Position numbers and translations under genes: made by a program. Shown here one piece after another: positions 6,759 through 64,000 of a stretch of DNA of 64,000 nt. Within the stretch, counting starts at the first letter, position 1, and every line of letters begins with the position of its first letter. This stretch comes from Henricia sp. BOLD:AAB3569. Taxonomy: Eukaryota; Echinodermata; Asteroidea; Spinulosida; Echinasteridae. The DNA lies in contig JBBELK010000542.1 of NCBI GenBank assembly GCA_037783545.1, positions 124,001 to 188,000 on the forward strand. The letters are read 5' to 3'. Below the pieces are notes generated by a model. That model was not told the DNA's origin, made no database searches, and saw nothing but the letters and a program-made list of their open reading frames with translations.

Positions 6759-7803
6759 TACATGTAGTATGCCATACCTTTTGAGACTGGCAATTTTATA
6801 AAATACTTTTCAGCAAGGTTATTAATTTGTTCAGGTAACGGATATTAAAGTGACAAATCGGCAAAATTCATATTACGCATGGGACATTCTTCGGTTGACG
6901 CGAAAAGCATTACGCGTGGGACACACATTTACAGTTTAAAAACAACCATTCCAGAATGAAATTTGTTGGTGCACATAGGCTTGGTAATCCCCAACACACC
7001 AGACATTTTATGAAACATGTAAGAATAACTAATAGTTACTGCTCAGTAGCCTTTTAAAGGCCATTTTGAAGCACCCCTTCTACAAACTGCGTCATCCTAC
7101 CGGTACATGTAATATAAACGTAAATTCTCATTTCAGAAAGGAATTAATTCTTCTCCATACAGGTACATGTTTACTTTGAGAAGAACACCTGTACATGTAC
7201 CGGTATCTGTTTTTACTAACTTTCTTTGCACATACCGTATTTTGTTATTATACATGTACATGTGGGTCTTTCCACAGTAAAGGGGCATTTTGGCAACACA
7301 GAACATATTTTCGAGGAAATACCTTTGTCTGGTCTCAAAATAAAAGAAATTTTCAGTTGTTCTGAAGAGATACATGTAACTTACCGGTAGGCCAAAAAAG
7401 GGTTACAAATAGTGTGACAACATGCCTTTCTAAAAACCCTGTGTACGGTACAAATTTCCAATATACGCTCGTAACCGGGACGGACACTTGTGTTACATTT
7501 TAGGCCGTCCCGGTTACGAGCGTATATTGGAAATTTGCACACAGGGTTTTTAGAAAGGCATGTTGTCACACTATTTGTAACCCTTTTTGGGCCTACTGTA
7601 AGTTACATGTATCCCTTCAGAACAACTGAAACTTTTTTATTAGGTGATCGGAACTCATTCCGATCACCTATTACTATTGTACGATTTCTTTTTTTTTTTT
7701 CTTCTTTTTCCACTCAAACGTTTCCAGAGCTTTTCTTCAAAACGGTTCAAGCTATCAACTTGAAACTTGGTAGGAACATCAATCCCAATGTGAAGGTGTG
7801 CAC

Positions 7804-9362
7804 TGAAGTGTGACGTCATTGTGACGTCATCGGGTATCAAATTACAACCCAAATATGACTAAAATATGCATGTTTTAAAATGCTTCCGTCTAGAAAACCA
7901 CGTGACCCATGATCTTCGTATTTGACAGGCTTATATATCAGATCATGGCCTACAATTTTCTTCGTGTGGGCATTTTCATCTGACCCTTCCTTCTGGGGTC
8001 AATCTGAGGTCAAAGTTCAACGAAAACGAAAATCTAAATTTTTGCACTTATTGAGCAACAATGCCTATCAAACCAAGCTGAATCTTTAAGTAACTAGGTA
8101 CAGGCATAGGTCCTATGGCAGACTTTCACCAGCGTGTATAATATTATGATGGCATCAAGCGTGACGTCATCGTGACGTCATCAAGTATCAAATTACACCC
8201 CCCAAAAAACCAAAATATGCATATTTTAAAATGCTTCCGTCTTGAAAACCACGTGACCCATGATCTTCGTATTTGGCAGGTTTATAGATGACATTCTGTT
8301 CTACAATTTTCTTTGTGTGGGCATTGTCATCTGACCCTTCCTTCTGGGGTCAATTGGAGGTCAAAGTTCAACGAAACTGAGAATCTCAGTTTTTACACTT
8401 ACCAGTAACAATGCCCATCAAACCAAGCTGAATCGTTAGTAAATTAGATACAGACATAGGCCCTACGGCAGACTTTCACCAGAATGTATAGTATCATGAT
8501 GGCATCAAGTGTGACGTAATCATGACGTCATCAGGTGTCAAATTACAAAAATTCAAAGGTTATTATTTCCAAAATTCATATCTCAAGAACCGTAATAGAT
8601 ACTTGAACAATTCTTTTACAACATGATAAGTCTAAATGAACTGAACAAATCATACAATGTCATGACCCCTGTGTGACGCCTACTTCCGGTCCAAACCGGA
8701 AGTTGTTCGAAAATGTGCATTTTTTAAAGCGTTTTGAATGCAAATAGATTCAAAGTGGTAGTGAATTTGACCATATTTCTACGGAACGAAATGTTTCCAC
8801 ACATGTGGACTTTTTGACTATACCATTGGTGACGTCATCACATGGACGGTAGTTACGTAATGTGGTGTCAAAATACGCAAATTTGGAGCTGAATTGTTTA
8901 AAAATGCTGTATCTTGAGAACTACAGCAGATATTTGCGTGATTCTTTCGCCACATTTAAGAACTTGATGTTTATCAAATTGTTGAACAATTTGTGCACAA
9001 CATTGTGACGTCATGATATCGTCACAGGTGTCAAATTACAAAAATTTAATGGTTATTATTTCAAAAATTCATATCTCAAGAATCGTAATAGATACTTGAA
9101 CAATTCTTTCACAGCATGATAGGTCGCAATGAACTGAACAAATCATACAATGGCATGACCCCTGTGTGACCCAAACCTCCGGTCGAAACCGGAAGAGGTT
9201 CGAAAATGTACACTTTTTTAGCACTTTGAATGCAAATAGAGCCAAAGTGGTAGGGAATTTGACCATTTTTCTACGGAACGAAATGTTCCCTCACATGTTG
9301 ACTTTATGACTACATATATACTACTGATGACGTCATCACGTGCACGGTGGTTACGTAATGTG
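7804..9362. repeat. Tandem units with repeated CRE octamers inside the 5.1 kb element
   Basis: Two ~350-bp A units (about 7804-8158 and 8159-8508) share GTGACGTCATNGTGACGTCA, a CGTGACCCATGATCTTCG block and a GACCCTTCCTTCTGGGGTCA block. They are followed by two B units (about 8509-9000 and 9003-9362) sharing ATATCTCAAGAA, AATCATACAATG and a CCGGAAGNGGTTCG-like block. The palindromic octamer TGACGTCA occurs at 7811, 7822, 8162, 8173, 8523, 8830, 9006 and 9328, and again at 10076 in a weaker B-like unit. Confidence 0.75.
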
Positions 9363-11585
9363 GAGAAATTATTTGTTGGGTCCCTTGATAATTAAGCTAA
9401 CTCAGTCGTTTGAGGGCGCTATGCCAAGCCTCCACTAATCTGACGATTTGCGCCCATATATAGTGCTCGACTTCTAATAATAGAACTTGTATCTAGGCGC
9501 CTGTCTCGGGTCAGAGGTCATAATGTATCTTTTAGTAGTGAATAAGTCAGACAGACGAGACATAATAAGCAGGGCTTGATTTACAACTCAGAAAATTTGA
9601 CTTTTGAAGATGTAAAACTGCTCGTTGCCGTGGCATCATCGCCATGAAAGTTGAATAAACACTAGATAGCACAAGGGCATTTACTTTTGGTGACTTAGCT
9701 GTTGTATCTTGGGTGTAATTATGTACGGCTAGCCTTAGTCGGCGGACCAGAGTAAATATGTCTTCTCCCCGAAAACTGTGAATGTGACATGCTGGAAATC
9801 GTTGCTGTGTTGGAAATAAAATGGACATGGTGGACCGCAACTCAAGTTGACTGGAGCGTCAGTTTATTCTAGATGCAATTGAACCCCAACTCCCCACACG
9901 GCGATATACTACAGTAATATGATCTCAAATGACAAAATCTTTAGAACTGTAATAGATATTGTAAAGATTCTTTCACCACATATGGGCCTAGGCCTACATG
10001 TCAAAACTTGTTCTTCAGTAGATACTTTAACAATCTGTGCACACAATAGTAACGTTATGATGAGATTGACAATTATGACGTCATCAGTTTTTCAGTTCGA
10101 TTGTACGAGACTGAAGCCCTAGCCTCTGCACACACAGCGCACAGCCCGCACCAAAATCTTACTATTTTTCATCTCAAAAATTCATCCACTTTTACCTGTC
10201 CAAATCTAACGAGCAACAGTTCATTAGAAAGCTTAGAGTTTCAGTCATTCACTAACGTACATAAAACAGCCGTCGGAGGTATGACCGACAGCCTAGGCTT
10301 TTATGAATGAACTACTCTCGCCCCGACCAGCTTTTCCCAAAGCGTTGCGATCGCGAGTATTCGGCCCATAAAAATTGCCGCTCGGCTGGGCGCGCATGCA
10401 CTTCGGGTGCTTTCCGCGGATCCGAATACTTGTGACGTACATGAAAAGGGTTTCCCTGAATAGCTGAAGGGGTACTGTACACGTCATTGCGTCCTTGTTA
10501 TCGGTAGGTGGTCTACAACCGAAGTTACGAAAAAGGGAAAAGTAAACTCAATTTCTTGAGGTGAAATCTTCATTTTGAAAGGTAGGAGGTTTCACTGAAT
10601 GAATTTTACATGTCTTAACAATTATTTGTGCGAGTTTGGAATGTTAAATGTGTTTATTTTTTTACGGAGAGCGTATTTTCTATACCCTTTCAAAAGCTCT
10701 TTTGATAGACACGAACGCCACGCTGTACGTGTGTGTGTTGGCCTATTGAATGGGGCACTCGCCCGTAAAAGGACGGCGTGATGCATGGCGTGACCCCGGT
10801 CGTTGGAATCTGGTTGTGTCAACCACTAAGTCTTAAAATCATGCTGTTTTGGTAATTTTATAACAAAATACACATCTCACATATATGCCGGATATATTTC
10901 TAGGGACGTCAGAATTACAATTAGCCGAATTTTTTAGGCCTCGTGTCCGTTAAATTTTGAAAGGAAGGTATAACCCTCCCCATATTTAAAAAAAATGGTA
11001 CAATCGTAGTTCGTACATAGGATACACAATGCCTTTTTTTGGGCGATACCATTATTACTAGAGGTATGTTTTTCCGCATTCCTGGAGGGGCAGATCTAAG
11101 TAATCAAAATTCAAATTGAATTTTTGGTTTTGGTTGTCGAATTGATATGTTTTATTTTGTTCACTATATCAGCTGTAAATACAATTAAAACAATAAATAC
11201 AAACCAAACTTTAAGTATTAAAGAGAATAGGCCTACAACTTACAAGTTTTTAAAAGTCATACTCATAGCCGCCCTAATTGTTTCAGTCAGGTCATTAAAA
11301 AAAGAAAAGGAAAAAAAAGGAGAAAGTTAACTAAATCTTAAGTGAGGGCATGGTATAATAAAATATCCTGTTGTCTCTACTTAATAAACTATCCTGTTGT
11401 CTCTACTTCCAGTATCAAGATTAAAGACTATGGCCGAGCCAGAAGAAAACCAGGAAAACCCTCCACCTCGGAGTATCACACTAGCATCCGCATCCTCCAC
11501 TTCTTTAAATTGACTTTTGACCTTGAAGATGAGTAATACAATACCTCAAATAATGTTACTGGCCTTTATTTATCACTTGTTCAGC

Positions 11586-12087
11586 TATCACCGCGTTTAC
11601 ACTCGAATCGGCAAAGGTGGATACAGATCCAGCATTTTTATTGCGACCACAAAACTGAACATTTGCCGCGTTTACACTATACCCCAAATCGCTTCAACTC
11701 GCTTCAGAAACCGCAAAAGTCACCACTAAATGTAACTGCAGCGCATGCGTGAGCTGTTAGGTGTTGCTGCACTAGTGCCAGATTGGTCAATTAAATCTAC
11801 TACACTGCGGGCACCGCCCCAAGGACACTCAAATTGTCGAATCTGTATTCTGGTAGCGTTTACACTACAAGCGACCTTGACGATTGCAGGGTTCAACCCC
11901 GCAATTGCGGGGTTCAACCCTACCCCAAAGGTGACTTGAAAAAGGCGAATCAGACCCGGGTCTGATCCGCCTTTTTCAATTCACCTTTTGCGTTTACACT
12001 TAGTGCCTACCCGGCTTCAACTCCCCTTTTTGGAAATTGCGGAGTTCGATTCGGCAAAGGTGAATCGAGTGTAAACGGGGTGTACAT
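11586..12087. mobile_element. Nested inverted-repeat cluster with CGTTTACACT ends
   Basis: The left boundary reads CCGCGTTTACACTCGAATCG and the right boundary is its near reverse complement ending GAGTGTAAACGGGG. Additional internal GCGTTTACACT ends occur near 11668, 11857 and 11990, so several related elements are nested or merged. It includes a perfect palindrome around CCCGGG at about 11940-11976. No coding capacity. It lies inside the 5.1 kb element, so it inserted later. Confidence 0.55.
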
Positions 12088-13084
12088 CATTGCCAGTAAC
12101 TGTTATTTCATCTGAAGTTTGTGGAGACGTCAAATTATATTGTTTTCTTTGGAGAAAATGTGCTTGTTTCCATGGCAACCATTAATTTGATTAAAATAAA
12201 ATGCTTGTTTCCATGGCAACCATTAATTTTATTAAAATAATTTAGACTTTTTCTGAAAGACCATACCACATTACCCTTATGCAGAAAGTTTTATGAGAAT
12301 ACTTCAATTATAGCAGAGGTTATACTGATTTATGTTACTAAAATTATTCAAATTATGTCGTTTTGGGGCCATTGTGGGGTATACGCAGTGAATGTATGGT
12401 CGGGCTTCATCGATTGATAAATATTTTAATACATATAACAGGATATCTCAAAAAGTACTTGTCCGATTTTCTTCATTTAAAGAGCATTGTATTTCTGTCA
12501 TCAAGAACTTTCATTTAATATATAGTTTGGGTGTTTAGGGCAAGGAATAAATTTTGGCCTGAAAACCTAGTAGTACAATTTTAGCGTTGAATAGTCAGAG
12601 TCATTATGTCTTGAGAATTCCAATACTTTTTTCAACAACAAACAACTCAAGTTTTCAAACAATCTCAAAACTGTGTCGTCATCATCATTTCAATGTTTAT
12701 GTCACCCGATCACCTTGCGTTTGTAAAAAACACAAACGCGAAGCTCTAGTTTTATTTTGAGACCAGACAAAGGTATTTTTTTCCTTGAAAATATGCCCCC
12801 TTTACCATGGAAAGAAAGACTCATGTGTATTACAGTATTAATTCATTCTGGTACTGAAACCAAGAATTCCTCAAAAGTGCCCATGGTAAGTTTTTGGAAT
12901 AGAGCAAGAAACTTAGTGTATTTCCGGGCAGAATTGTTCTAGACATCTGTAGTGTGCCATGTGTAAACAGAACAGGTAGATGTACATGTAGTTGGGTTTG
13001 TAACAAAAAGTACAATGTTGTAAACCATTTACCGGTAATGTCACTAACATTGCCTTTTTGTTGTAATGTCCATGTTCATTTCAG

Positions 13085-16000
13085 GAGCTGATGTGGCTGC
13101 TCTATGATCTCGGACATCTCAAAAAGTAAGTCTTTATGTCTGCTATGTAAACAGCTTCAAGATCACTTTCCATAGATTCATGTGCAATTTCAAGACCTAC
13201 CGGTAGCTAGATACAATATAATTCAGACCCAGTCTTAGTGTAATAACCTGCCTAAACGCCTGTCCGCATTATACTTTTTTTGGACGATGGGTACTTTTCC
13301 CATTTTAAGTCCAATGCGGACAGCCTAGGATGCTTTTCTCTCAGTAACTTTTCCTAAATGCAGCGGTTACTTTTCCTGGGCAGAATTTAACCAGGTAACT
13401 TTTCTGGAGACAAAAAGTCCAATATGCGGACACAGCGAGTTGGAAAAAGCGCTCTGGAAGCGTACGTCCAGACCGTGAAGGTCAAACTGTGAAGGGACAT
13501 TGTGCATGCTCTCCCACGGTCTCGGTAAAATTTTACTGTGTCAGAAAGTTCAAATGCGGACAGCAGTAAAATTTAGCAATTTTTCATTTTACCATCGTCT
13601 CAGTTAAACCTCCCAAAAAACAAGTCCATTGCGGACACGGCTTTAGCTTAGCATTTGGTTGGACAAAATGCGAGTAAACGAGAAGTAGATAGTTTGCACG
13701 ACAGCCATATTAGAGATCTTGAAAGTGCTTTTCCCAATGTGGCAGGTATTTTGTTTCTATAGATTACTGACGTGAAAATGTCACCCTTTATGTGTTTCAA
13801 AGGTTACTAGATCGACATTAAAACCAGTGAACTGTTTCTCTGTGCTTTAGCAATTGTTTTTCCAGATTACCTGTGAATGTTTGGACCCTAATAACTAAAG
13901 TCACACTTTCCACAGTAAAGGGGGCATTTTGGCAACACATACCGGTACATGTATATTCAAGGAAATACCTTTGTCTGGTCTCAAAATAAAAGAAATAAGT
14001 TTAAGTTGTCCAGGGTCCTACATGTATTTCATAAAGCCCACTTACACTGAACAAAATTATAAACGCCCCATGTGACACTTTGAAACATTTATTAGCCTTA
14101 CCGGTATATTAAATCATACAAAATTCATTTTGTTGTTCAATATGCTACATATTACTGTCCGTTAGAATAACCAATTTGTACAATTATAAGACAATATCAA
14201 CTCATTTAGGGTCGCCCATTTCATGTTACATAAATAATTTACATGGGGCGTTTATATTTTTGCTCAGTGTAGAAACATTCCTAAATAAACATTCTTAAAA
14301 CTCATGTTTTTAAAAAATGTTTTTAACTTTTATGAAAAAGGACCCAAAAAGGGTTACATTTTAGGCCGTCCCGGTTACTAGCATATATTTGAAATTTGTA
14401 CACAGGGTTTTTAGAAAGGCATGTTGTCACACTATTTGTAACACTTTTTTGGGCCTAGTTATCTCTTCAGAACAACTTAAACTTATTTCGAGACCAGACA
14501 AAGGTATTTTCTGGAAAATATGGTCCGTGTTGCCAAAATGCCCCCTTTACCGTGGAAGACTCACTTCAGTATTCTATTGTCACATCATTTGCAGTCAAGG
14601 TCAGAGGTTTTAAATGCACCACTGTTCTGAGATCAAAATTACCATTATCTCTCAAAATGGGAAATAAAGCTGGACCTGTGCAATAGTGTTTAGAAACCAT
14701 GTTTGTATTAAAGGACTACATGTACATGCATGCGAGGAACTCCACAAAATCAAGACTTTGAATATATATTTTATCCCTTTGATCAAAATCGTGAGGTCAC
14801 GTTGTGGATTGGGCATTTGTGACATGAAGAGTTCCCCCTTCCCCCTCCCATCAGTTCAACCCCACATCAATGCATTCTTGTCAAGCTCATCCTGGGGCTG
14901 GAGATCGGCACCTCATCCTTCATTTGAAGTTTTGAACAATTGAGAACTCGCTCCTGTGCCATTTCACACTATCATTCCTTCACCCCACCCAGGGATAAGA
15001 TTTCAACCCTGAATCCGATTAGGGTTGAACTCGCCCTTGGGAAAAAGAAATCTCGGGCGTGGCTTGGGGGTGACGCGAGGGTGAGAATTTCAAGTGGAAA
15101 TCTGGGCCTATTTACTCCTCCGCTTCACCTTGGGGCCATCCCAAGATTTGGTCTTGTGGGAAAAGGCCTTACAAATTTTCCTAACCACCTCCCCCCCCCC
15201 CCCCCCCACCCCCCACCCAAAAAAAAACTCTGACTGGGAAAACTTTCACTGAATATTTACTTCCAATTACTCACCCAGATACCCCATGGCTCTTGGCAAC
15301 CTGGGAGATCTTGAGAGCATAGACCCAACACCAGATAGACCCTCCACGATTGACCTGTTCCAAGAGGCCATCTCAGCTGCGCAGAACGATTACGACGATC
15401 ACCATGTGTATCCATACACGTACCTCGGCGGTCACCTCTACCGGAACTATGAGTATAAGAGGGCTATGGAGCAGTGGGCAGAGGCATCTAGCGTCATTAG
15501 TCGGTTTGTTTAGTGTTTGCTTGTTTGTTTTTTTTCTGTGTTTTTTTAGAAGTGATCTTTGTAAAGTTGTCAATAAGGGGGCCGTCCATAAAGTACATGT
15601 ACGTACGCACAAAATGCTGACTTTTTAGACCACCCCCTCCCCTTGTATGCAAAATTTGTGACGTCACCAATATACTTTAACGTTGAGTGTACGCATTGGA
15701 TCCAACTCCCCCTCCCCCCTCTTCCCCCCTCCACCCAACCCCCCTCCCCCCTCTTCTCCCCCCCCCCCCCTCCCCCTTCTTCTCCCCCTCTCTCCCTCCT
15801 CTCTCCCCCCTCTCCCCCCCCCCCTCGCGTACGTACTTTATGGATGGCCCCTAAGATATTAAAACAGATGAAAACAAAAACCTACATCAATGACTTTCGT
15901 GGCGAGATAAAACTTTTGATGTGACCAAGATTCGAGCCCGAGTTCTAAGACCTCCTCATGAGGTGACTGGGGCTGAATGAATTTTGAATTCACGTTCGCG

Positions 16001-25975: not shown

Positions 25976-26394
25976 TTCACATACCCATTGTCCATGTATA
26001 GAGGTCGGTGAATCGGATCAAACAAGCTTTTTACACGATTGTTTTTAAAATTTATTGCAAACAGTTTTCATGGACGTTTGATCATAAAGAATACAAAAAT
26101 ACACATGGGATTCAATTTCATTGTTTAGCATAATTTACAAAGTACATAAGCACAATATACACCAAAATGCATAGAAGGAAGGGAATAAACTGGTGGGTTA
26201 TTACATACTGCTAAAAATAAAGCGGAACACAGATTGTTTTGGACAACATGGTTTGGAGTGTGAAAACTGAAGCAAGGCACCATGTGACCACTCCCAAAAT
26301 GTACTAAATGTTTAGTACATGTACACCACTTTACTTATATTAGGCCCAAAGTGTTACAAACAATGCGTCTGACTGGAGTGACAAAATCATGTCT

Positions 26395-26620
26395 ATACAC
26401 ATTTCCAATATTATAACCGGGATGGACACTTGTGCTACATTTTTGTCCATCCCAGTTATGTGTTGTGGAAAAACTGTACATATTTTTTTCCCCAGCAAGG
26501 TAGGTTGTCACTTCTTCTTTTTTTCACCTTTTAGGAGCCCAAGTTATCTCTGTAGAACAACTGAAAACATATTTCTTTAATTTTGGGACCCTTTTACAGT
26601 AGAAAATACCTATTTACATT
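26395..26620. mobile_element. Foldback repeat F, degenerate copy 3
   Basis: It contains the palindromic centre (AACCGGGATGGACACTTGTG, about 26415) and the right-arm blocks CCCAAGTTATCTCTGTAGAA and CAACTGAAAAC found in the copies at 7257-7641 and 42357-42723. The outer parts are lost or unrecognisable. Confidence 0.55.
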
Positions 26621-42168: not shown

Positions 42169-42356
42169 AGTTTCTCCGTAACTGATTTAGGTAGCCTTTA
42201 CCCCGAGTGGCCTGTGGTGGGCCTTGTAATAGGCGATTTGCATAAAAAAAGACATATGACACCTTTGCCACCCTGACAGGTACTCATTTACTCCTGGATG
42301 GAGAGAGATTATTTATGGCAGATTTGTCCAATACATGGAAGACCATTTTTGAAATG

Positions 42357-42723
42357 GGTCTTTCCACAGTAAAGGGGGCATTTTGGCAACACGGACCATA
42401 TTTTCGAGGAAATACCTTTGTTTTGGTCTCAAAACAACATGCCTTTCGAAAAACCCTGTGTACAAATTTCCAATATACGCTCGTAACCAGGACGGTCACT
42501 TGGGTTACATTTTAGGCCATCCTGGTTACAAGCGTATATTGGAAATTTGTACACAGGGTTTTTAGAAAGGCACGTTGACACACTATTTGTAACCCTTTTT
42601 GGGCCTAAGTTATCTCTTCAGAACAACTGAAACTTATTTATTTTATTTTAAGACCAGACAAAGGTATTTTCTGGAAAAAATGGTCTGTGTTGCCAAAATG
42701 CCCCCTTTACCGTGGAAAGACTC
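42357..42723. mobile_element. Foldback repeat F, most intact copy
   Basis: The left arm starts GGTCTTTCCACAGTAAAGGG, the centre is near 42505, and the right arm ends CCCCCTTTACCGTGGAAAGA. A left-arm segment present at 7385-7430 is partly deleted here. It ends only about 86 bp downstream of the XRCC3 stop, so it may lie in the XRCC3 3' UTR. The minus-strand AATAAA within it (42637-42642) could serve as a polyadenylation signal, which is inference. Confidence 0.75.
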
Positions 42724-42809: not shown

Positions 42810-45800
42810 TCACCTCAAGCCTCTAACCCCATCCGTCTCCACCACAAAGTAACAAGTGTCGTTGGGCAGGTGTGGAGCAAACACCACTTCCATGGATCTG
42901 ACTGGCACCTCTGCCTTGGTGCAGGGCGTCTCTAGGTCCTTGTGCGATGCTAGATCGGTATGCGGGCCACTGGAGTCAGTAGATGACAGTTTGTAGTTAG
43001 TCCGTCCCAACATGAGGCGAGTTTGCACGAGGTTTGACCAGGTCAGGCCAAGGGCTGGAATGAGCTGCCGCTTGCTGGAGTGATCTCCGGTGTTACTCAT
43101 GTTGGCAGTAACCTAAGAGTGGACAAAGAGATTAAAAAACCTTCTCTTTCATTTATTTGTAGTAATTGTAGGTTTAGGATATATTGTAGGGAGTTCACAG
43201 ATATTTTATTGAGGATGTGCATTCCGCTTGAATGATTTTGTACACACCAATCCGAGAGCCGAGGACTCCTTTTCTTTATATCCGCCATAGCTGGGGGGCT
43301 TCCACTGAATGAACTGTATGTTTTCTGCTGTTGCTGAAGTTGCATTTGTTTACTTCGAACAAGTTGCGCATCTTTGTAGGATCGATTGTGTACACCAAGA
43401 GGGCGCGTCATGTGCACGCAAAGGGCGCGCGTCGCGTGCACGCAAAGGGCGCGCGTCGCGTGCACGCAAAGGGCGCGCGTCGCGTGCACGCAAAGGGCGC
43501 GCGTCGCGTGCACGCAAAGGGCGCGTGTCGCATGCATGTAACGGATAAGCACTTTTCGTTCTAACAGCAACACAAAACACACAGTCCATGCAGTGGACAC
43601 CCCCCAGAAAGGAGACCTTAGTTACCGGATTGGTCTATATGATTAGACAATCTGTATGACAGACACTCCTGTCACAGGAATATGCCAATATCCCTAACTT
43701 TTTGTGAAATGTGTAGTTACTTACAAAATTACACGGAGACTCAAAGGGGAGACTCTGGAAGCACTGTACCCTGGGACTATTTCTCTGTCAGGCCATTGGA
43801 TGCGAACAGATGTACATTGTGTCACTGGGCCAAAAGTAGGATTACTGATTATGCAGGGTACAAAAATTACTGGGGCTTGGCCAGAGGCCCAGATTTCCCA
43901 GGGTCAGCCTGACTGGTTTGTAAACACAACATTAAAGGTGACCATACTGGGGTTCGATTGAGGATCATATGGAGTTTAAGCAAAATTGCCCAAAAGATGT
44001 TTTAGTAATTAAAAATTACAAAAATGTGCCTTCCGAAAATACCCCCATCTTCCGAAAGCAGCCAAGGTATGTCAGAGAGTTAATTTGGACTTGCAGGACC
44101 AGTTTACCTGATTGACACAGACAATGGGCGTATCATAACACCTGCTGAGTCCATGCAGCTGGGAGGCCAGAGTCTGCAGGTGCCTTGCTCTCCGAGCCAT
44201 CTCACCCATACCGAACTCGCAGCGGAAGAGGGCAGCTACAGAGTCTAGAATGACAAGCCTGACACGGCTCTGCTGTACAAGAAGTGGAATGCGATACTGT
44301 ATGCAATGCTCTAGCTGATCCTGTAAGGGAGATATGTGCACAAATAGCATCAAACTAGTATTTAAAAAGGTTTATTATATCATTTGCAGATTAAACTTTT
44401 TACGAATTTCAGGAAAAAAAGCATTAAATAACAACAAATTACGTTGATAAACTGCCTTGTAGAAATTTCAGCCACATAGATGCAGTAATATGTCAGAAAA
44501 CATTAAAAATCCATGCATGGTTTTTGTGTTGAATGATTGTCAAAAAATGAATTTGCAAAGATTGGTTTTTTTTAAAGTTGCTACCACAAAGGTACCATCT
44601 TACACGAGAAAAACAAATCATTTTTATCAACACTTTTAGTCGGGTTTTTCTTGTCAACTCATTAAGTAAAATTTTGGGTAACTGCAAATTATGTGCTGGG
44701 GCTTTAACAAGCAACTGGAATTATATAATATTGGATGGCTTTGAGGGTCATGAAAATACTGAACGAGCCGAAGGGGCGAGTTCGGTATTTTTATGATGAG
44801 TGCGGTATATTTTCATATCACCCGAAAACACATCCAATATTATTATTGTTTTGTAGGATTTACCAGTGATTTTTAATAACCAATCACTGGGAAAAATTGA
44901 CTGCTCTTGATTAAGATTTTCTGTATGATTGAGACATGTGACTAATTCCAGGTCTAATTCCAGCATACCCTTTCTGATATGTGCTCAATGAAGACGTTAT
45001 CTCCTAGTTTCAGCTGACGGGATTCTGCTGGATCCAATTTCTTGTAGAAACACTCCATGAGTTGGTGTAACCTCTTGCTGGGGAAAACATCTTCAGTGCA
45101 GATATACACTGCACCTGAAAGATTGAGAATGGGGAAAAAAGGTTGTGATGGAATATTTTGAGTGATTGACAAAATTGACATCACAGAGGGTTTTTCAGAC
45201 TGCAGAAACCATGGGATTGATGTAGGATTACAGTTGTTTGATCAGATTTAACAGATGCAATCAATTGCTCAAAACGCAATTCACTACCCTCTCAGGTACC
45301 CCTTTACTCCTGGGTGGAGAAAAGCAATGTGTGGCAAAGTGTTGAGAAGTTAATCAGATTTTGTTTTCTTTTTAAAAAAGTCTCTTTTTTCCCTGACTAA
45401 CCTCCACCAAGTCCCCCCTTCTCAGGTGCCCTCTGCACAGTGAGACAGAGCTGCATGCACAGCTGGGTCTTTCCTGACGCGCTCTCTCCAGCTATCTCAG
45501 TGATACCACGCGACACGATGCCTCCCCTTAGAAACTCATCCAATACATCGCAGCCAGTGCTAAGGGTCGTCGTCTGTAGCGACTGGTGGCATGTGCCTTG
45601 GTATAGCTCAAGAGCTGTTTCAGGTTTGGTACAAGTCAAATTAAAGAGTAAAGTGTATGAACAAATAATTTTAATCTTAATACCATAATCAGGATGTTTC
45701 TTAAGTTTTAAGTTTTTGTACTAAATAAGCTACATGTGCACTCTTATACTCACAATAAGTTATGGATTTTGGTATGTTGTCAATTTTGGAATTTTGTTTT

Positions 45801-48920: not shown

Positions 48921-51900
48921 ATGTCGTGTGTATTAAGTAACCTCGGTCGCTTTGAAGACATTTCTGCTGTGCGTAAATACCTCATTCCCAACAGTAAAGG
49001 GCCCGAGAAAGGCGATCTTGGTAGGTGTAAGTATCGCTGCGGGCACAGGCTACCTGGTGCCTGGCTACAGCCATTCACGAAAAAACATGAATAATGCGGC
49101 AATAAGCTTGCGCAGCTTTTAAAAATGACTGCATGAAAATATCCCAAATTGTTGCGCAGCTTGTGCAATAATAAAAAGTTGCGTAAGCAGCCAGTCACAC
49201 AGTCGCATAATGTTTCGTGAAATCGGCTGCAAAGATTAATTAATAAAAAGTTTAAAATCTTGCAAATTAATCTGATAAAAATTTAAATTGAAATTGAAAT
49301 ATTTGGAGTAGGGCCTAACAATTTTGTCTTGATTTAAAGTCTCACAGTCTTAAAGGTACACACCGGCCTACTGTTTACATGATTTAGTGATGTATCACCA
49401 TTTTAAGAAGAAATAGGCATTCACCAATTCAGACAATAAAATGTACCGAAGCTAAGTCCTAAACTAGATTATCTACTGGCACCTTGGTTGGCGTGTCAAG
49501 TGTATTTGTTGGACATTTTGAGGGTGAAAACTGTTGCTTTTTTGGGGTGTGTGGGAGCTTGGAGTTAATACAATGCCGGTACCTGCCAAGTCGCTTGGAC
49601 CCTACATATATCGCAAGCCACACCCCCATGTTAAAAAAGCAATATTGTAGGGTCCAAGTTACTTGGACTAGAGTAGCATTACTCCTAGAATCGGAGGCAG
49701 CCAGTCTGCCTCCCAGTCTGCCTCCTGGCTACTTTAACTTAAGAAGGCTAAAAGTGACTTTTTGATGTTATCATTTGGACAGGATGAGTCACTTTAATAA
49801 GCCGTTCGTAAAAACCAGTATGGCAGCCATCGCATGGTCACAACATTTATACTGTGGTCAGTTTACACGTGTCAAAAATCTCACTTTACAATCAAAATTA
49901 AACTTTTAAAAACATACCATGGAGATTGTTTGACTCTCAAGAATTATGTGTGCATTGATTGGTCAGATTTTCCTGCTATGACTCTTACACTGTAAAAACA
50001 AACCTCACCCAACACTACATGTATCTTTCTTTGGATTTTTCCGGTAAACCTGACATCGTTGAAATTTTCACTGATTACTGCATGATGTCACCGCAATACA
50101 ATGGGATAACCGCAAGACGGCGGGCTTGAGTTGTCCCCATACATGTAGGTTTAGTGCATGGGGTCTCATTGGGTGTCTGTGCATGATAATCTTTCCAAAA
50201 AAGAGAAAGAAAACAACATTTTCAACGAAAGTGCAAGTGGGAAGTATATCTTGGAACTAATTAAGCTGTTGATTCCAGGAGGTAATTTCCTTAAATTCTT
50301 TGTTCAAAATATATGAAAAATTCTCTCTCTTCTCTATTTTTCCATTCTCTTTTACATCACACTTAATTTCATTGACAAAATACATCTTACACTTACCTCA
50401 TATAAATGTTATTTTTTTTCTGTTCTCATACGTAGTCCTTTCATCATACATTTATTTTTTTTTTCTTCAGATGGTTGGGATGATGCGGATTGGAGTTGGA
50501 ACCAAGATGAGAATGAGGTCAGTGTCTAAAAGATTACAGGCATTTCCTTGAGATGATAAAAACAAAATTAGAAGGGAAAAATGCCAAGATTTTTCAAAGT
50601 TTTCAAACTTTCCCCGAACGTTTTGTGCATGAGGTTTCTGGCAGTGGCCGGGTGCGGACTTCTTTCCCCACATGATTTTTTTTCTATTTACAAAATAATA
50701 CCTCTGGTAGAAAATATCAACTGAAATTTTATTTATTTATTTATTATTATAATTTTTTTTTTAAATGAGCATGCACCTTATTATTTTTAGCATTCATTTT
50801 TTTAAGCATTAATAATTAAATGAGCGTGACCAGATCACATTTTTGAGCCCCCCACTTTTTCCGCGGGTGTTGAGATTTTGATACCATATTAATTGTCATA
50901 TTTTTCTCATTACCATTCTAATATTTCGTACCCTGAATCCGTATATTTTCAAGAATATCGTCAAAAAACCACCGATGTTTTCTAAACTAATTTATCTGTT
51001 CCATAAAGCAGCAGTGCAGTGATTACACCAACCTGTTTGCTTCTTGACATCCAAATTGGAGATTGCAAATATCATGTTTTCTTCACGTTGATAGTATTTT
51101 GGGGAGGTATTTTATATGATTTGTAGGTTAAAACAAAATCTATTCTCTGGAAAAATCTGAACACACTCCTTAAAAATATAATTTAAAAATATATGCTGAC
51201 CTGTTGAAATGATAAACAAATTGTGTAAAAGTCATTGTCCTGACACTTAGGCTGGATCCGAATTAGTGGCTGTGGCTGTGGCTATGGCTGTTGCTATGCT
51301 GTTGCTATGGGTGGACAATGAAAGTCCTTAGAAACAGCATAGCAACAGCCGAAGCCACAGCCAAAGCCACTAATTCGGATCCAGCCTTACTTTAGGCCTT
51401 AGTGATGTTAAATGCAACTTTTAGACACTTCTTTTTGCAGGAGGAAGAAAGTTCCGAAGTGAAGAAGGATGAGCAAGAGTCTTGGTTGCAGGAATGCAAC
51501 TTGACACTGTCTCCTACCAATGACTTGATGGTTATAGCATTTGAAGAGAAAGCTGTCTTCTTACAGCGTAAGAACTACAAGGCTCATTTGTAAATTTGTT
51601 GCAAAAAGAAACATATTTTTGCCAAAATTAAAAACTCTTTTAGTTATTATTTTGTATGAATAGGTGATTTCGTTTAGGGAGAATGACCCAGGGACCACCT
51701 GAAATAATTGAATTAATTCGATAGAAATTTGGACTAATGATTATGAGTTTGGGGAATCTGGATGCAGTGAAAAACAACTTGGCTCCACCGGGATTCAAAC
51801 CGCGGACCTGCTGCTTAACGTGCAGATGCCCTACCAATTGAGCTATGAAGCCAACTGGTGGTCTTAAAATACATTATTGCAGTTGTTCCTCATTTATTGG

Positions 51901-54900
51901 GATTGGCTATCATGTGAGCTTAACAAGCCCTACAGAGGGATAAACCCTTCAATGAGATAACCACCCCTCCCAGAGATCACTTAAGTTGTTTTTCGAATCC
52001 CGGTGGAGCCAAACTGTTTTTCACTGCATCCGGATTATCCAAACTATGGACATTTGTCCACATTTCTATCAAGTTATTATTTTGTAGAATTCCTCCAAGG
52101 AATGACATTGGAAGTAAATAGTATACAAATATTGACTGCAATGAGGGGCATGGTTAAGATTATAGGCCCAAGGTGATCTCGAAGCCATGACTATGCCCCG
52201 AGGCGGAAGCCGAGGGGCATAGTCATGGCTTCGAGATCACCGAGGGCCTATAATCTTAACCATGACCCGAATAAACAGCAGTCAATATTTGTTTTATATA
52301 CCGAATGTGTAGATTTTTGTCATCTGGTTGGTTAAAAGTAACGATACATCACACAGTCATGACAGTGGTCCTTCGAGTTTCGATTTCGGAAGCTGGTCTA
52401 CGGCGGAAAAGTTGTAGATTTACAGCAAACATTTGTAGCATAATCACCTGGCACTTTAGTAGCACATTTCACCTGACACAGTTTTCACTGTAGGCCACTT
52501 CTCTTACTTTCTTAAGGACTTCATCATCTACGACAGACGACAAAATGACGTCGAGATTCCGCCATTACCGTCCTGCTGAATGTTTACGTGAAGCGCCCAG
52601 CTGCATAGTTGGTGCACCGCTATGCTAACACATGTAATGCGCGCGTCCGGAACCCGCTAAATGACTATGCCCGGGGCATGGCAAAGACTATTGCCCGGTG
52701 GGCATATACGCGCCGGGTCTAGCTGATTCAATGCCCCCACTTTTAACCAATCAGATGACAGGAATCTACGCATGAGGTATATAATCAAATCTATTTCGCC
52801 ACTTTTGAAAAGATATAAAAAGTTCTATGTATTTTTACACAAAATATGAAATAATGAAAAAAAATTCCAAAATATGAATTGCATACATATTGAGTTTTTA
52901 CTCTTTCTTTCACAGCCAAGTGGGACCCTCGAGATGACGATGGAATCGATTACCGCTACCAAGTTGTGTACAAGGGCGCCCTCAACCAAGAAGAAGGGTA
53001 TGTTGAGTTTTATTTGTTTATTGAATTATAGGGGAAAATGCGGCTTTTCTCAAAATACCAGGACTTGGAATAAATTACTTGGAATAAATTCCTATTTGAA
53101 TATTCAAATAAAACATTTACTCAAATATCGAAAAGTCGTTCAGACTGACATGTGTATAGGGGTCATTACATGAGGTTGGGTATATAAAAAAGTGGTGTCA
53201 ATGTTGCATTGGTACAAGTTCTTTTATTTAAAGACTGGAGAATTATTTATCTAGTGAAATATTTGTTGTACTGAATATGGCTAGGTGTCCCAATATAATC
53301 ATGTTATTTTCACTGACCAATGAAATATTTGTCTTACCTACGCAACATGGACATAACATGTGTTTAGCACTACGGGTACATTTTGGAAAGGAATGAATTG
53401 TTCTGCATACATATTTACCTTTAATAGCATAGGAAGGGGGGGTGGGGGAAGGGGGAGGGGGAGGGGGAGGGGGAGGATAAATTATTGGTGTGTCTATAAA
53501 TTATTGGTAATTGGTATCTGCTATAGACCAATCCGGTAACTAAGGTCTCCTTCCCTGCATATCCGCCATAGCTGGGGGGGCGTTGCTATTAGAACAAAAA
53601 GCGCTCATCCAAAACATGCACGCGCCCCGTTCGCATGCACGTGAGGTGTCCTCTTCGCGTACACGCGACACATCCCCTTCGCATACATAACCCTACAAAG
53701 ACGCGCAACTTGTTCAGAGTAAACAAATGCAACTTCAGCAACAGCAAAAACATACAGTTCATTCAGTGGAAGCCCTCCAGCTATGGCGGATATACACCAA
53801 TCCGGTAATAAGGTCTTCTTCCCTGTATATCCGCCATAGCTGGGGGGCTTCCACTGAATGAACTGTATGTTTTTGTTGTTGCTGAAGCTGCATTTGTTTA
53901 CTTCGAACAAGTTGCGCGTCTTTGTAGGGTTGTGTGCGCGCGAAGGCGGGCGCGTCGCGTGCACGCAAAGGCGGGCGCGTTGCGTATACGTGAAGGAGGC
54001 TCGTGCATGTAATGGATAAGCGCTTTTCGTTCTAACAGCAACACAAAACGCACAGCCCATGCACTGGACGCCCCCCAGCTATGGCGGATATGCAGGGAGG
54101 AGATATTAGTTACCGGATTGGTGTATACAGGGAAGGAGACCTTAGTTACCGGATTGGTGTATAGTGAGGGGCCATCAAGAACAAGAACTGTGTAATTTGT
54201 ATTACTGCAGCCAAACACTGTGTAGTACTTGTCTTAGGTTTGAGTGATGCCTTGTATTTTGATATTTGGTCCTTTGTTTTTACAGAGAGTGTGTGACGAG
54301 TGTTATCTGCATTCCTTTAGCTTCACAAAAGCGCAGTTCACAGGGGGCGCCAGACTGGACATGTGTCGTGGTAGGATTCACATCTGGCTACGTGAGAATG
54401 TATACAGAAGTAAGTGGTTATTTTTCTATCGTCAAGCAAACTTGAATCCTTTATTCTGATTGGTGGATCCATGGCAACAGAGTGTGGTGCTTATATGAGG
54501 TTCATTCAAAACCCAGAAAGTGTTAGAAGAAAAAGATTGTTCTTGCATTATTTTTTAACATGGTCACCCCTAACTTCAATTCACTTGGTCCACCAATGTT
54601 TAAAGGCCCAGTGGATCATTTGCAATGACCCAAAAAGTAATCGACGAGTTTACAGGGGAAACGTTCTGAAAGTAAAGATTGAATTAATAGCAACTATTCA
54701 ATGAAAGGTTTTCGCTCAAAATTATATAATTTTACCAGAAAATAATCCATAAAGATGAAATTATTTAGATCGTTTGCAAACGATTTACTTATTTTTGGTT
54801 CGCATCTACGCGGTCCAAAATGCATGGGCGCTGTGTACTTTGTGTGTGTGTTCCAACGCGATGCATTTTTATGGATCGCGCGCACACGCAGTATGTGCGC

Positions 54901-57900
54901 CACAGAGTGCATGACGCAAGCCACATAATACTCGATCAACTGAGAACGAATATTTGAAACACCCCGCCAAGACCAGGAAAATGCATATGGATTTTCATGT
55001 TTTTTTAAACGTGGTACATTTGACAAAGCTGAAATTTCTTCGGATGAGTTTGTTGATGTCTTTCTTTTGATTTATAATGGTTTTATTCGCAGAATCGCTC
55101 AAAAACAGATCATCTACAGGGCCTTTAAGCATTGCGATCCCATCATAGAAGAAGGTTGCATCCTGGTCCTCTAAATACTCCCCATAACATGGTGATTAGG
55201 CAGCACACCAAATAATTTGGATACAGTATGCAGGGGGTCAAGGATTCGATCTTGCTAGAAAGTTTTTCTCAGTGTTTCAAAAAAGCATTAGGTATACAGT
55301 GCTAATCAAAATACGTGGGTAAGAGCAAAACAAGCCCTTATTAACAATTTGCATACAGTCTTATAATCTACTTTCTCGTTGCAGACCGGAGCACTTCTGC
55401 TCTCCCAACTTCTCCACGAGGACCCCATTCTCAAGTTAAAGTGTCGTACCTACGAGACTCCCCGGTACCCCGGCATAGCAGAGCAGCAGGAGGAGCTAAC
55501 CATCCTATACCCGAATGCCTTGGTTACCATTGACGGTTTCAGCCTGTTTCAGTCACTCCGAGCGTGCCGCAACCAACTTGCAAGAGGTGGGTGGTTTTTG
55601 AATGTAAAATTCAAGTACTTTTCCAGTATAGGACAATTTGCTTGTGCATATTACCATACCTCATACCTATTCATGGTCTGATGTAATTTTCCCTCGCACA
55701 ATGTGACAGTGTGCAGGAAATCATGAGATCGAGTCCAACCCTTGCGCACCATGAGGTTTTTAAAATTTTATCTTTGGAAAAGCATTTTGTGTATATTGCA
55801 TTTGTCGCTCTGTGTATGGGCAAATTACATCCATTTAACAAAAATAAACTCCTTTCTTAATGTTTTAATTAATTAATTTTTATGTTTTTGTTTATAAAGC
55901 GGCAGCTAGTGGTAGTGACCAGATCCAACCACCACCACTAACCTATAAGAAATGGGGATTGATTCGTCAAGATGCTATTACTGATCACGTCAGCTGTGGT
56001 AGGTGCATTATGTAGTCAGGCCTTGACATAAACTGCGGCCACCGAGGCCAATGGCTTCATGCCCTACTGAGTTTGCCCCAACAACCCTTCAAGATATACA
56101 TTTTCTCAGGCCAACTCTGGCCAGCATGCCGTATCCTCTTAAATTTCATGTGGGAGAATGCGAATTGGCTTGCGTCGGAGACGCGACATAACTTGATTTG
56201 CACTGTATACTCAGTGCTTCCCCGAGACACTATGAGAAAAACTTCATAGCGTGTTTGGGTGGGACTTGAACCCACGACCTCCTGCATACTAGGCAGACGT
56301 CTTAACCACTCGACCAGCGGGCTGGCCGGTGTTGAGTAACTGGTTTGAATCATTTAGTAGCGGGTACCGTAACTGACGGGAGAATGCGATTTGGCTTGCA
56401 TCGGGGAGAATGAATATTAATTAGGGTTTGCCCTCCCCGACGTAACTTGATTAGCACTGTATACTCATAGGCTGCGTTCGGGCTTGTACTCGGGTTAACA
56501 CGAGTATACTGCTGCGCGCGTGAACGGCAAGAGTAACAACACTCGGGTCAATGAGAGTATGCTCTCGCTACTATGGGTGGGATTTTTGGTGAATTTGCTT
56601 AATGTGTCAACTGGATAACTGAAACAACAACTCACTAAGGTTTGTTTACTTTTAGACCGCATCAAAGGTTCTCACAACTTACGGTTTGTATTTTCTTCAG
56701 TTTCTTGTGAGCAGTGAAACAGTGTTTTTTGTGCAGTCATGGCAAGAGACGGCCATCTTGACTGATGGCTATTCGCGCATGCGGACTGCGAACTTGCCGT
56801 TCCTGTAATTTGACCCGAGTGCAATGCGCACGCATTACTCCGGAGTAGCGAGAACTGTACACCCGAACGCAGCCAAGGTATCTCGGGGGAAGCACTAATA
56901 TACAGTGCTAATCAAGTTATGTAAGGCAGGGCAAACCCTAATTAGAATTTAATGTGGATGAACAAATTGGTTGTGCTTAGTAGTTTATTACGTCCAATCA
57001 CTGTTTGTCTAATTTCATAGCTCGACCTTTAAGCATTTTTGCTTGTTGTCCTGTAGGTGTGGTGACACCATGTGCATTTGACCAGCTGAATGCAGACTCC
57101 ATCACCAATGGCTATATGGCTAGTGTTAAGGCCACGCCCCCAGCTGCAACACGCTATGTAACAACAGGTGTCGGGCCTTATGTAGGCTTCTTTTACGCTT
57201 TGGAGGTGAGACTAGTTGGGTTACTTGGTACTGATTGAGTCAGTATGTCAATGTGGCTCAGTCACTATGAACAACTAACAATGGAAATTGGGCACACACT
57301 ATTGTTAATAACAATGGTTTGTGCCCAATTTCCATTGTTAGTTGCTCATAGTGAGTTGTTGAGACTTTAAGATATGGGCTTTTCTCAGGTTGAGAGATCC
57401 TTTTGGCAATTAGGACCAAACTATTTTTTTTCTGCAAGCCTCGCTTTGGTTACGTTTATTTTAATAGGAGAAAAGGGAAGATGGCCGCACCGTGATAAAT
57501 GTCTATAGAGTAACAAAACTATGCAACAGATGGTTTTCGGGAAATTTTGTAGGAAAATACTATCCTTATTTCTATTGCTAAAAGGACACCCAGACCTGAG
57601 AAAGACCCACATACGCTCCATTTAAAACCAGCTAGGTGCCTTAATTAATGACATTTAATGAAATGACATTTATTTTTCGTTTTACAGGGAAGCAGCCAGC
57701 CACTGCTATCTGACGTTGCCATGGCAATGGCCAGCAAATTAAAATCAGCACTTCTCTCAGCTGCAAGGTAGGATATGTAGTGGAGGTTAGATCTGTTTGT
57801 GAAACTAAAAAAAAAGAGACTCTAGAACTCAACAAAAAGAACAGGATAAGTGTATTGAGCTCGTGCCAATGACGTCATTTTGGGAGTCAAATAATGCCGT

Positions 57901-62839: not shown

Positions 62840-64000
62840 TTACACACGTTGGAAAATTTTCACATTATGCACATCAGCAACTGCAAGATCCCCATCGGGA
62901 GTAAATGTGATTCCTAACGGGGAGGTGAGCCCTCGAACCACACAAGCAATGTGTTCTCCCTTAGGACCGAAGTGGTGAATCTCGCCCGTTTGTCCCTTCA
63001 ACGTGGCCCGAAGTGCCAGGTAGATATCCCCTGAAGTATCGCAGCATACCCCGGTTGGTTCGTAGGCTGGGTTTTCTTCCGTCAGGGTGTGGATGGAGAA
63101 AATCTCCTGGCCTTTAATGTTGGAAGCCATCAACAAGCGAGCTTGGAGATTCGTGTAGATGATGCTTTCCAAGTTTCCAATAGCCAGGTGTTTGCCGATC
63201 ATCTCTGCTGAGACGGTCGTAACGAGAGAACCATCTGACTTGTGCAGGGAGACTATCTTCTTACCCTTGTCGCCAATGGCAACCTGATTCTTGTAATCCA
63301 TGGCGATGCATCTCAGGTCTGTCTCGGGCTCCTCTTCGATGTTGTCGCTTTTGGGAGCTCTGGTCACCTTGGAGGGGGTAAACTTGAAGGCTAGCTTCCG
63401 CTGCTTGTTGAAAACCTTAATGCTGGGAGTGTCGACCACCATGAGTTGGTTGTCTGTCATCACGGCAACGTCGCAGGGTTTCTGGATATGGCCGTCCGGA
63501 TTGTTGTCGCCCACTCCTCGAATGCTGCTTTTAAACTTGCCATCAGAACCCAAGATGGTAACTCTTCCGTTGACTGGATCTGCCACTGCCAGATCACTGT
63601 TAGAGAATGCCGCAATTCCTCTGGCTTCCATGAACTCCCCGTCCTCCATTCCTCTCTTCCCAATCTCATTCTTCAGCTCCCACTTTTCCTCTAGAAGGAG
63701 CTTCCCAAAGGAACCGTCTTGACCCATGCTGCTCTCCTTGAAATCCACAAAGGACAGGCTGTGCTGAAGAACCGGAATGGGCTTCTTCACGACATCTTTA
63801 AGAGTGAACAACAGCTTGTGTTTCAAATCCAGGACTTCAAAGGGACTTCCCTGCATGAGGAAATCTTCCACAATGTCCAGGGTGTGCTTGGACCACTTGA
63901 GGCTCTCCACTAAGCCGGCTTGGAAAGCTGCAATTGTAGAAGACCGGTCTTCCTCAATGACTTTAACCTGCTGCTTTAACTCCAACTCATTCTGGCGGAT
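62840..64000 (-). CDS. TRIM-type protein, coiled coil plus NHL repeats (3' part, open at window edge)
   Basis: The frame is uninterrupted from the window edge (64000) to TAA at 62840-62842, 386 codons, without an intron. The visible N-terminal ~110 residues are helical and Lys/Glu-rich (ELELKQQVKVIEEDRSSTIA), typical of the coiled coil after a B-box. From about residue 130 a series of NHL/beta-propeller blades follows, e.g. ARGIAAFSNSDLAVADPVNG, PCDVAVMTDNQLMVVDT and GITFTPDGDLAVADVHNVKI, and it ends FQRV. TRIM-NHL proteins are usually E3 ubiquitin ligases or RNA-binding regulators; RING and B-box would be upstream, outside the window. It is not close enough for me to choose among TRIM2/3, TRIM56 or lineage-specific TRIMs. 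It lies antisense to, and possibly nested in, RAB3GAP2. Confidence 0.85.
   Translation of the reverse strand: MRQNELELKQQVKVIEEDRSSTIAAFQAGLVESLKWSKHTLDIVEDFLMQGSPFEVLDLKHKLLFTLKDVVKKPIPVLQHSLSFVDFKESSMGQDGSFGKLLLEEKWELKNEIGKRGMEDGEFMEARGIAAFSNSDLAVADPVNGRVTILGSDGKFKSSIRGVGDNNPDGHIQKPCDVAVMTDNQLMVVDTPSIKVFNKQRKLAFKFTPSKVTRAPKSDNIEEEPETDLRCIAMDYKNQVAIGDKGKKIVSLHKSDGSLVTTVSAEMIGKHLAIGNLESIIYTNLQARLLMASNIKGQEIFSIHTLTEENPAYEPTGVCCDTSGDIYLALRATLKGQTGEIHHFGPKGEHIACVVRGLTSPLGITFTPDGDLAVADVHNVKIFQRV

What the first reader, a model, noticed from the sequence alone, without database searches (positions are those of the whole stretch)
7257..12833. A 5.1 kb Helentron-like element inserted in a foldback repeat, with both parts readable
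The foldback repeat at 7257-7641 breaks after ...TTTTATT and resumes at 12750 with TTTTATTTTGAGACC. The intact copy at 42357-42723 runs straight through this point. The 5108-bp insert has a 5' palindrome, an inverted match of AGGTGATCGG near its 3' end, and a 3' hairpin followed by CTAG. These are Helitron/Helentron features (established for the family), but no Rep-helicase frame exists, so it would be non-autonomous. Whether TTTTATT is a target duplication or chance in a T-rich target is open: Helentrons normally make none, so the repeat argues slightly for another class.
Basis: partly seen in the sequence, partly recalled or inferred. Interest (0 to 1): 0.7.

Follow-up and report, generated by a model that had tools for sequence, protein, structure and literature searches.

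The report
Non-autonomous Helentron-type rolling-circle transposon
A 5.1 kb stretch of animal-like DNA looks like a protein-less "rolling-circle" jumping element that landed cleanly inside another jumping element; it belongs to a known kind, and the neat part is that its landing site can be read almost to the base.

Summary
An insert interrupts the right arm of a foldback repeat (7264-12822, itself flanked by ATGT/ATGT). The insert carries the terminal signature published for Helitron2/Helentron/HINE elements: a 10-bp arm in a palindrome at the 5' end (7642-7669), the same arm inverted 34 bp from the 3' end (12706-12715), then a hairpin (12717-12739) and CTAG (12746-12749). The whole set occurred once in the window and in 0 of 200 simulated windows.

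Four arms that span the target all lack two Ts that the occupied arm has; a fifth is deleted there. The simplest reading is no target duplication: the element is TT-AGGTGATCGG...CTAG, 7640-12749, 5110 bp, inserted between A and T. A 2-bp TT duplication is not excluded.

A six-frame Pfam scan found no Rep, helicase or endonuclease trace, so it is taken as non-autonomous. Inside lie a diverged tandem array, a solo-LTR-like insert (9359-9913, GTAA/GTAA), a possible captured promoter and exon (inference), and a nested inverted-repeat element.

Other genomic copies could not be sought: the genome search did not answer in 13 of 13 tries. Verdict: new member of a known kind, modest interest.

The parts
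7264..7639 (+). left part of interrupted foldback repeat (copy A); ATGT at 7260-7263
12750..12822 (+). right part of the same foldback repeat; second ATGT at 12823-12826
7640..12749 (+). the inserted non-autonomous rolling-circle element, 5110 bp including 5' TT (5108 bp without)
   Evidence: empty-site arms; ends
7640..7641 (+). two Ts in excess over four empty-site arms: 5' TT of the element, or 2-bp duplication
7642..7669 (+). 5' palindromic asymmetric/subterminal inverted repeat, arms 7642-7651 and 7660-7669
7688..7709 (+). T-rich simple stretch after the 5' palindrome
7797..10035 (+). central array of four units, 351, 350, 494 and 485 bp (the last with the LTR-like insert and one GTAA set aside): two units of one type, then two of another, sharing their first ~45 bases; fragment of a fifth at 10036-10068
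9359..9913 (+). nested solo-LTR-like insert (TG...CA), 555 bp, flanked by GTAA 9355-9358 and 9914-9917
10140..11139 (+). CpG-rich stretch (observed/expected 1.10-1.25 against 0.71 for the window); possible captured promoter and first exon (inference)
11413..11513 (+). possible captured exon: splice-acceptor-like tract to 11412, then a 27-codon ATG frame 11430-11513 (inference only)
   Evidence: no PDB match
11589..12082 (.). nested element bounded by 21-bp inverted repeat, 90% complementary (CACCGCGTTTACACTCGAATC)
12706..12715 (+). 3' inverted copy of the 5' arm (CCGATCACCT), 34 bp from the 3' end
12717..12739 (+). 3' terminal hairpin, 8-bp stem, 7-nt loop
12746..12749 (+). 3' terminal CTAG

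Best explanation
A non-autonomous Helitron2/Helentron-type (HINE) element. A Rep-helicase made elsewhere in the genome would nick at the 5' TT/palindrome, peel off one strand by rolling-circle replication, stop at the 3' hairpin and CTAG, and insert the strand into a T-rich target, here between A and T in TTTTTTA^TTTTATTTT, without a target duplication. Pairing of the 3' inverted copy (12706-12715) with the 5' arm, which competes with the 5' hairpin, would mark the end of replication, as Bao and Jurka propose. Shown here: anatomy, empty-site comparison, lack of a detectable coding remnant. Inferred from the family: nicking, circle, the trans-acting protein and the pairing switch.
For: Ends coincide with the break of a repeat that is uninterrupted at this point in relatives. 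The 5' palindrome, third arm copy, 3' hairpin and CTAG lie in the published order and near the published spacing (PMC3627910 section 9; PMC4067079 passages), and the set is not a chance event. Empty-site arms show no duplication beyond two Ts; HINE junctions are reported with variable Ts and no target change (PMC4067079 section 6). A central tandem array is often embedded in HINEs (PMC7492417 passages). No transposase trace.
Against: No second copy was seen: none in the 64 kb window beyond a single 9/10 arm match at 63195, and the genome could not be searched. No Rep-helicase partner was seen. CTAG and A^T insertion are more like canonical Helitrons and proto-Helentron than the TT target of Helentrons. 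The 3' arm copy lies 34 bp from the end, between the ranges of the two papers (about 20-30 and 38-60). The empty-site arms are diverged paralogues with length variation of their own (B-right is deleted at the site, A-left lacks three bases beside it), so the two-T excess could be drift.
Confidence: 0.87

Rival explanations
1. A cut-and-paste DNA transposon that makes a 2-bp TT target duplication and happens to have a subterminal inverted repeat.
For: Two extra Ts relative to four empty-site arms could be a TT duplication; a 10-bp inverted match exists between the ends.
Against: The inverted match is asymmetric (0 or 2 bp from one end, 34 bp from the other), is palindromic at one end only and is followed by a 3' hairpin and CTAG, which is the rolling-circle layout; no transposase trace.
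Confidence: 0.06
2. A canonical Helitron (Helitron1) derivative: A^T insertion, 3' hairpin about 10 nt before CTAG.
For: CTAG end, hairpin 10 nt upstream, A^T target by the simplest alignment.
Against: The 5' end is TTAGG or AGG, not TC, and it has a 5' hairpin and asymmetric inverted repeats, which Bao and Jurka give as features of Helitron2 and lacking in Helitron1 (PMC3627910 section 9).
Confidence: 0.06
3. Not one element but a chance composite, for example several insertions or an assembly join inside the foldback.
For: The insert holds at least two nested elements.
Against: The outer ends form one matched terminal set at the foldback break; 0 of 100,000 random end pairs show two or more of the features.
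Confidence: 0.01

Closest known systems
HINE (non-autonomous Helentron; DINE-1 type), PMC4067079
   Same: Palindromic subterminal repeat within 2 bp of the 5' end (paper: about 2-4), inverted copy near the 3' end, 3' palindrome 10 bp from the end (paper: about 8-35), T-rich target with extra Ts and no clear target duplication, internal repeats, no coding capacity found
   Different: 3' copy lies 34 bp from the end (paper: about 38-60 in the mite families); ends in CTAG; apparent A^T target; further copies and partner unseen
Helitron2, PMC3627910
   Same: 5' repeat 0-2 bp from the end within a 5' hairpin, 3' repeat upstream of the 3' hairpin, T at the 5' end if TT belongs to the element
   Different: 3' repeat 34 bp from the end (paper: about 20-30); no Rep-helicase here; some algal members in the paper do have target duplications of about 7-19 bp
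proto-Helentron-Pi of Phytophthora infestans, PMC4067079 section 11
   Same: 5' TT, 3' CTAG, insertion between A and T, no target duplication (on the simplest alignment here)
   Different: That element is about 14 kb and coding, with ends described as more like Helitrons; this one has Helentron-type palindromic subterminal repeats and no detected genes
Cg_HINE of the Pacific oyster, PMC7492417
   Same: subterminal repeat plus complementary repeat on the left, tandem array in the middle, subterminal repeat plus palindrome on the right
   Different: Here about 2.6 kb of other DNA lies between the array and the right end; the oyster right flank is a 60-bp segment; no sequence comparison was made

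Membership tests
Helitron2/Helentron/HINE | 5' asymmetric (subterminal) inverted repeat 0-4 bp from the 5' end forming a hairpin | tested here: met
   7642-7669
Helitron2/Helentron/HINE | inverted copy of the arm near the 3' end, upstream of a 3' hairpin | tested here: met
   12706-12715, 34 bp from the end, hairpin 12717-12739. The spacing falls between the ranges in the two papers
Helitron2/Helentron/HINE | T-rich target, no target duplication | tested here: met
   T-rich target plain; no duplication is the simplest reading of one insertion against four informative arms, a TT duplication is not excluded
Helentron (strict) | insertion within a TT dinucleotide | tested here: inconclusive
   A^T by the simplest alignment if TT belongs to the element; T^T positions remain possible
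Helentron (strict) | Rep-helicase with apurinic endonuclease in an autonomous partner with the same ends | not tested
   genome search unanswered in 13 of 13 tries; the insert itself shows no trace
Helitron1 (canonical) | 5' TC and no 5' hairpin | tested here: not met
   5' TTAGG with a hairpin
Helitron1 (canonical) | 3' hairpin about 11 bp before CTRR | tested here: met
   hairpin ends 10 nt before the end, which is CTAG
Multi-copy transposable element family | further copies with the same ends | not tested
   none within the window; genome search unanswered

The most novel reading that the evidence does not exclude
An animal rolling-circle element with mixed ends: the palindromic subterminal repeats of Helentrons together with the 5' TT, 3' CTAG and A^T insertion reported for proto-Helentron of an oomycete. 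It would be an animal-side intermediate between Helitrons and Helentrons, carrying a captured promoter and first exon. (That the host is an animal is itself inferred from recalled gene names.)
Probability: 0.15. Interest if true: 0.5.

Novelty: new member of a known kind. Interest (0 to 1): 0.27.

Why it matters
It gives a near base-level before/after picture of one insertion of this element type, inside a repeat whose relatives, uninterrupted at that point, lie in the same 64 kb. If its Rep-helicase partner were found, the site would help decide whether animal Helitron2-clade elements can use the A^T rule, which bears on how Helentrons and Helitrons diverged. In itself it is an ordinary genome parasite.

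Tried and rejected
A TTTTATT 7-bp target duplication was rejected: the arms that span the site already contain TTTTATTTT (TTTAATTTT in D) right of the break.

Coding remnants: a six-frame Pfam scan with stops read as X listed three families up to E 1, all below their cut-off of 25 bits (DUF3019 14.9, DUF777 13.3, SURF2 11.6) and taken as chance. Short or much decayed remnants could be missed.

Other collections: the 5' palindrome pattern matched 11 stretches of viral contigs; all 11 carry the same palindrome with a 4-nt loop in identical flanks, and none has a third arm copy in the DNA held. Treated as unrelated.

Captured exon: the 27-residue frame had no match in solved structures up to E 10; so short a query is a weak test, and the gene is not identified. 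High CpG is not confined to 10140-11139: 7640-7889 and 8640-8889 also reach 1.08 and 1.10.

Literature: search listings. Passages were seen of PMC4067079, PMC3627910, PMC5148889, PMC7492417 and PMC4778049, and whole sections 6 and 11 of PMC4067079 and 9 of PMC3627910. No claim is made that this family is unpublished; repeat databases were not on hand.

Full report
What is there. The window looks eukaryotic, with interrupted genes; I read menin-like, ankyrin/EF-hand and TRIM-NHL-like frames, names that are recalled and come from no search. A foldback repeat occurs in at least four places: A 7264-12822 (interrupted), B about 13906-14564, C 42356-42723, and a diverged D at about 26340-26590. A and C are flanked by 4-bp repeats, ATGT and AAAT; B shows no clear pair and D was not examined for it. 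Copy A is split: its own left arm pairs with the sequence from 12750 on over 29 of 29 bases.

The ends. The insert begins AGGTGATCGG-AACTCATT-CCGATCACCT (7642-7669). The arm recurs inverted at 12706-12715, 34 bp before the end, followed by a hairpin at 12717-12739, GAAGCT and CTAG. As single-stranded DNA the 5' end folds with z -9.07, the last 33 nt with z -3.77 and the last 50 nt with z -3.35, where 2 of 200 shuffles fold as well. A scan for the full signature found it once in the window on both strands and in 0 of 200 simulated windows. The weaker signature, palindrome plus a further arm copy, had 8 hits on + and 28 on -, against a mean of 0.01 in the simulations; in the similar scan such hits are mostly TACATGTA-type and other simple or palindromic repeats, so it is the 3' hairpin and CTAG that single this case out. 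At two random ends of matched composition two or more of the three features coincided in 0 of 100,000 trials; single features appeared 8 (palindrome), 1138 (3' hairpin) and 47 (third arm) times.

The target. Five other foldback arms were aligned with the joined flanks of A. Four span the site (A-left, B-left, C-right, D-right), and all four go straight from C or A into TTTTATTTT (TTTAATTTT in D). The fifth, B-right, is deleted there. Joined at 7641/12750, copy A has two Ts more; joined at 7639/12750 it matches B-left and C-right in length. A-left lacks three further bases beside the site. Either TT is the element's 5' end, giving TTAGG...CTAG inserted A^T without duplication, or two Ts sit elsewhere at the junctions, or a TT duplication was made. 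HINE junctions are reported with variable Ts and no target change (PMC4067079 section 6), and proto-Helentron-Pi with 5' TT, 3' CTAG and A^T (section 11). The arms are diverged paralogues, which limits the strength of this test.

The interior. From 7797 there is an array with units of 351, 350, 494 and 485 bp. The first two are 85% identical over 342 bases, the last two 86% over 369; the two types share only about their first 45 bases. The last unit is split by a 555-bp TG...CA insert flanked by GTAA on both sides; after it the unit resumes (GTAATATGATCTCAAA against GTAATGTGGTGTCAAA) but then has a gap and lower identity. A solo LTR is likely, though no LTR library was on hand. From 10140 to 11139 CpG is in excess (observed/expected 1.10-1.25; window 0.71), but 7640-7889 and 8640-8889 also reach 1.08 and 1.10. 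It is followed by CpG-poor sequence (0.21 at 11140-11389), a pyrimidine tract ending in AG at 11412, and a 27-codon ATG frame at 11430-11513. This looks like a captured promoter, first intron and exon, but it is inference: no parent gene was sought in the genome, and the peptide had no match in solved structures. A further inverted-repeat element spans 11589-12082. Six-frame Pfam scans found nothing above a curated cut-off.

How it works. Shown: ends, target, lack of a detectable gene. Inferred from the family: a Rep-helicase supplied in trans nicks, replicates by rolling circle and stops at the 3' hairpin. In the reconstructed bat Helitron the 3' hairpin acts as terminator, circles form, and read-through captures flanking DNA (PMC4778049 passages). 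Bao and Jurka propose that pairing of the two arms undoes the 5' hairpin and sets the end point (PMC3627910 section 9).

Membership. The Helitron2/Helentron/HINE terminal features were tested and met. Canonical Helitron1 fails on the 5' end. Helentron in the strict sense cannot be decided without the partner protein. Oyster HINEs with internal tandem arrays (PMC7492417 passages) are the nearest described design in what I read; no sequence comparison was made.

Limits. The genome search gave no answer in 13 of 13 tries, so copy number, shared ends, empty alleles and the autonomous partner are untested. The organism is not identified.

Noticed in passing
7264-12822, 13906-14564, 42356-42723, about 26340-26590: A foldback repeat family, 368 bp in copy C, with four copies in 64 kb and 4-bp flanking repeats (ATGT, AAAT) at two of them; its transposase class was not determined.
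   Followed up: partly
14044-14270: Inside foldback copy B lies another inverted-repeat element (ACACTGAACAAAATTATAAACGCCCC ... GGGGCGTTTATATTTTTGCTCAGTGT), so two of the four foldback copies are themselves hit by other elements.
   Followed up: partly
9359-9913: Solo-LTR-like insert with GTAA/GTAA flanks, nested in the tandem array of the element.
   Followed up: yes
7797-9024: Each of the four tandem units opens with one or two TGACGTCA palindromes (CRE-like; name recalled); the fragment of a fifth at 10036 does not.
   Followed up: no
51780-51852 (-) and 56259-56316 (-): Two tRNA family matches (51.5 and 43 bits); they could be genes or tRNA-derived repeats.
   Followed up: no
43434-43515: A short regular array of GCGTGCACGC palindromes, spaced 24 bases, with a further copy near 53957.
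   Followed up: no
L001-L011: Eleven stretches of viral contigs share one identical perfect palindrome AGGTGATCGG-4-CCGATCACCT in identical flanks, possibly a terminator of one virus group; unrelated to the finding.
   Followed up: partly
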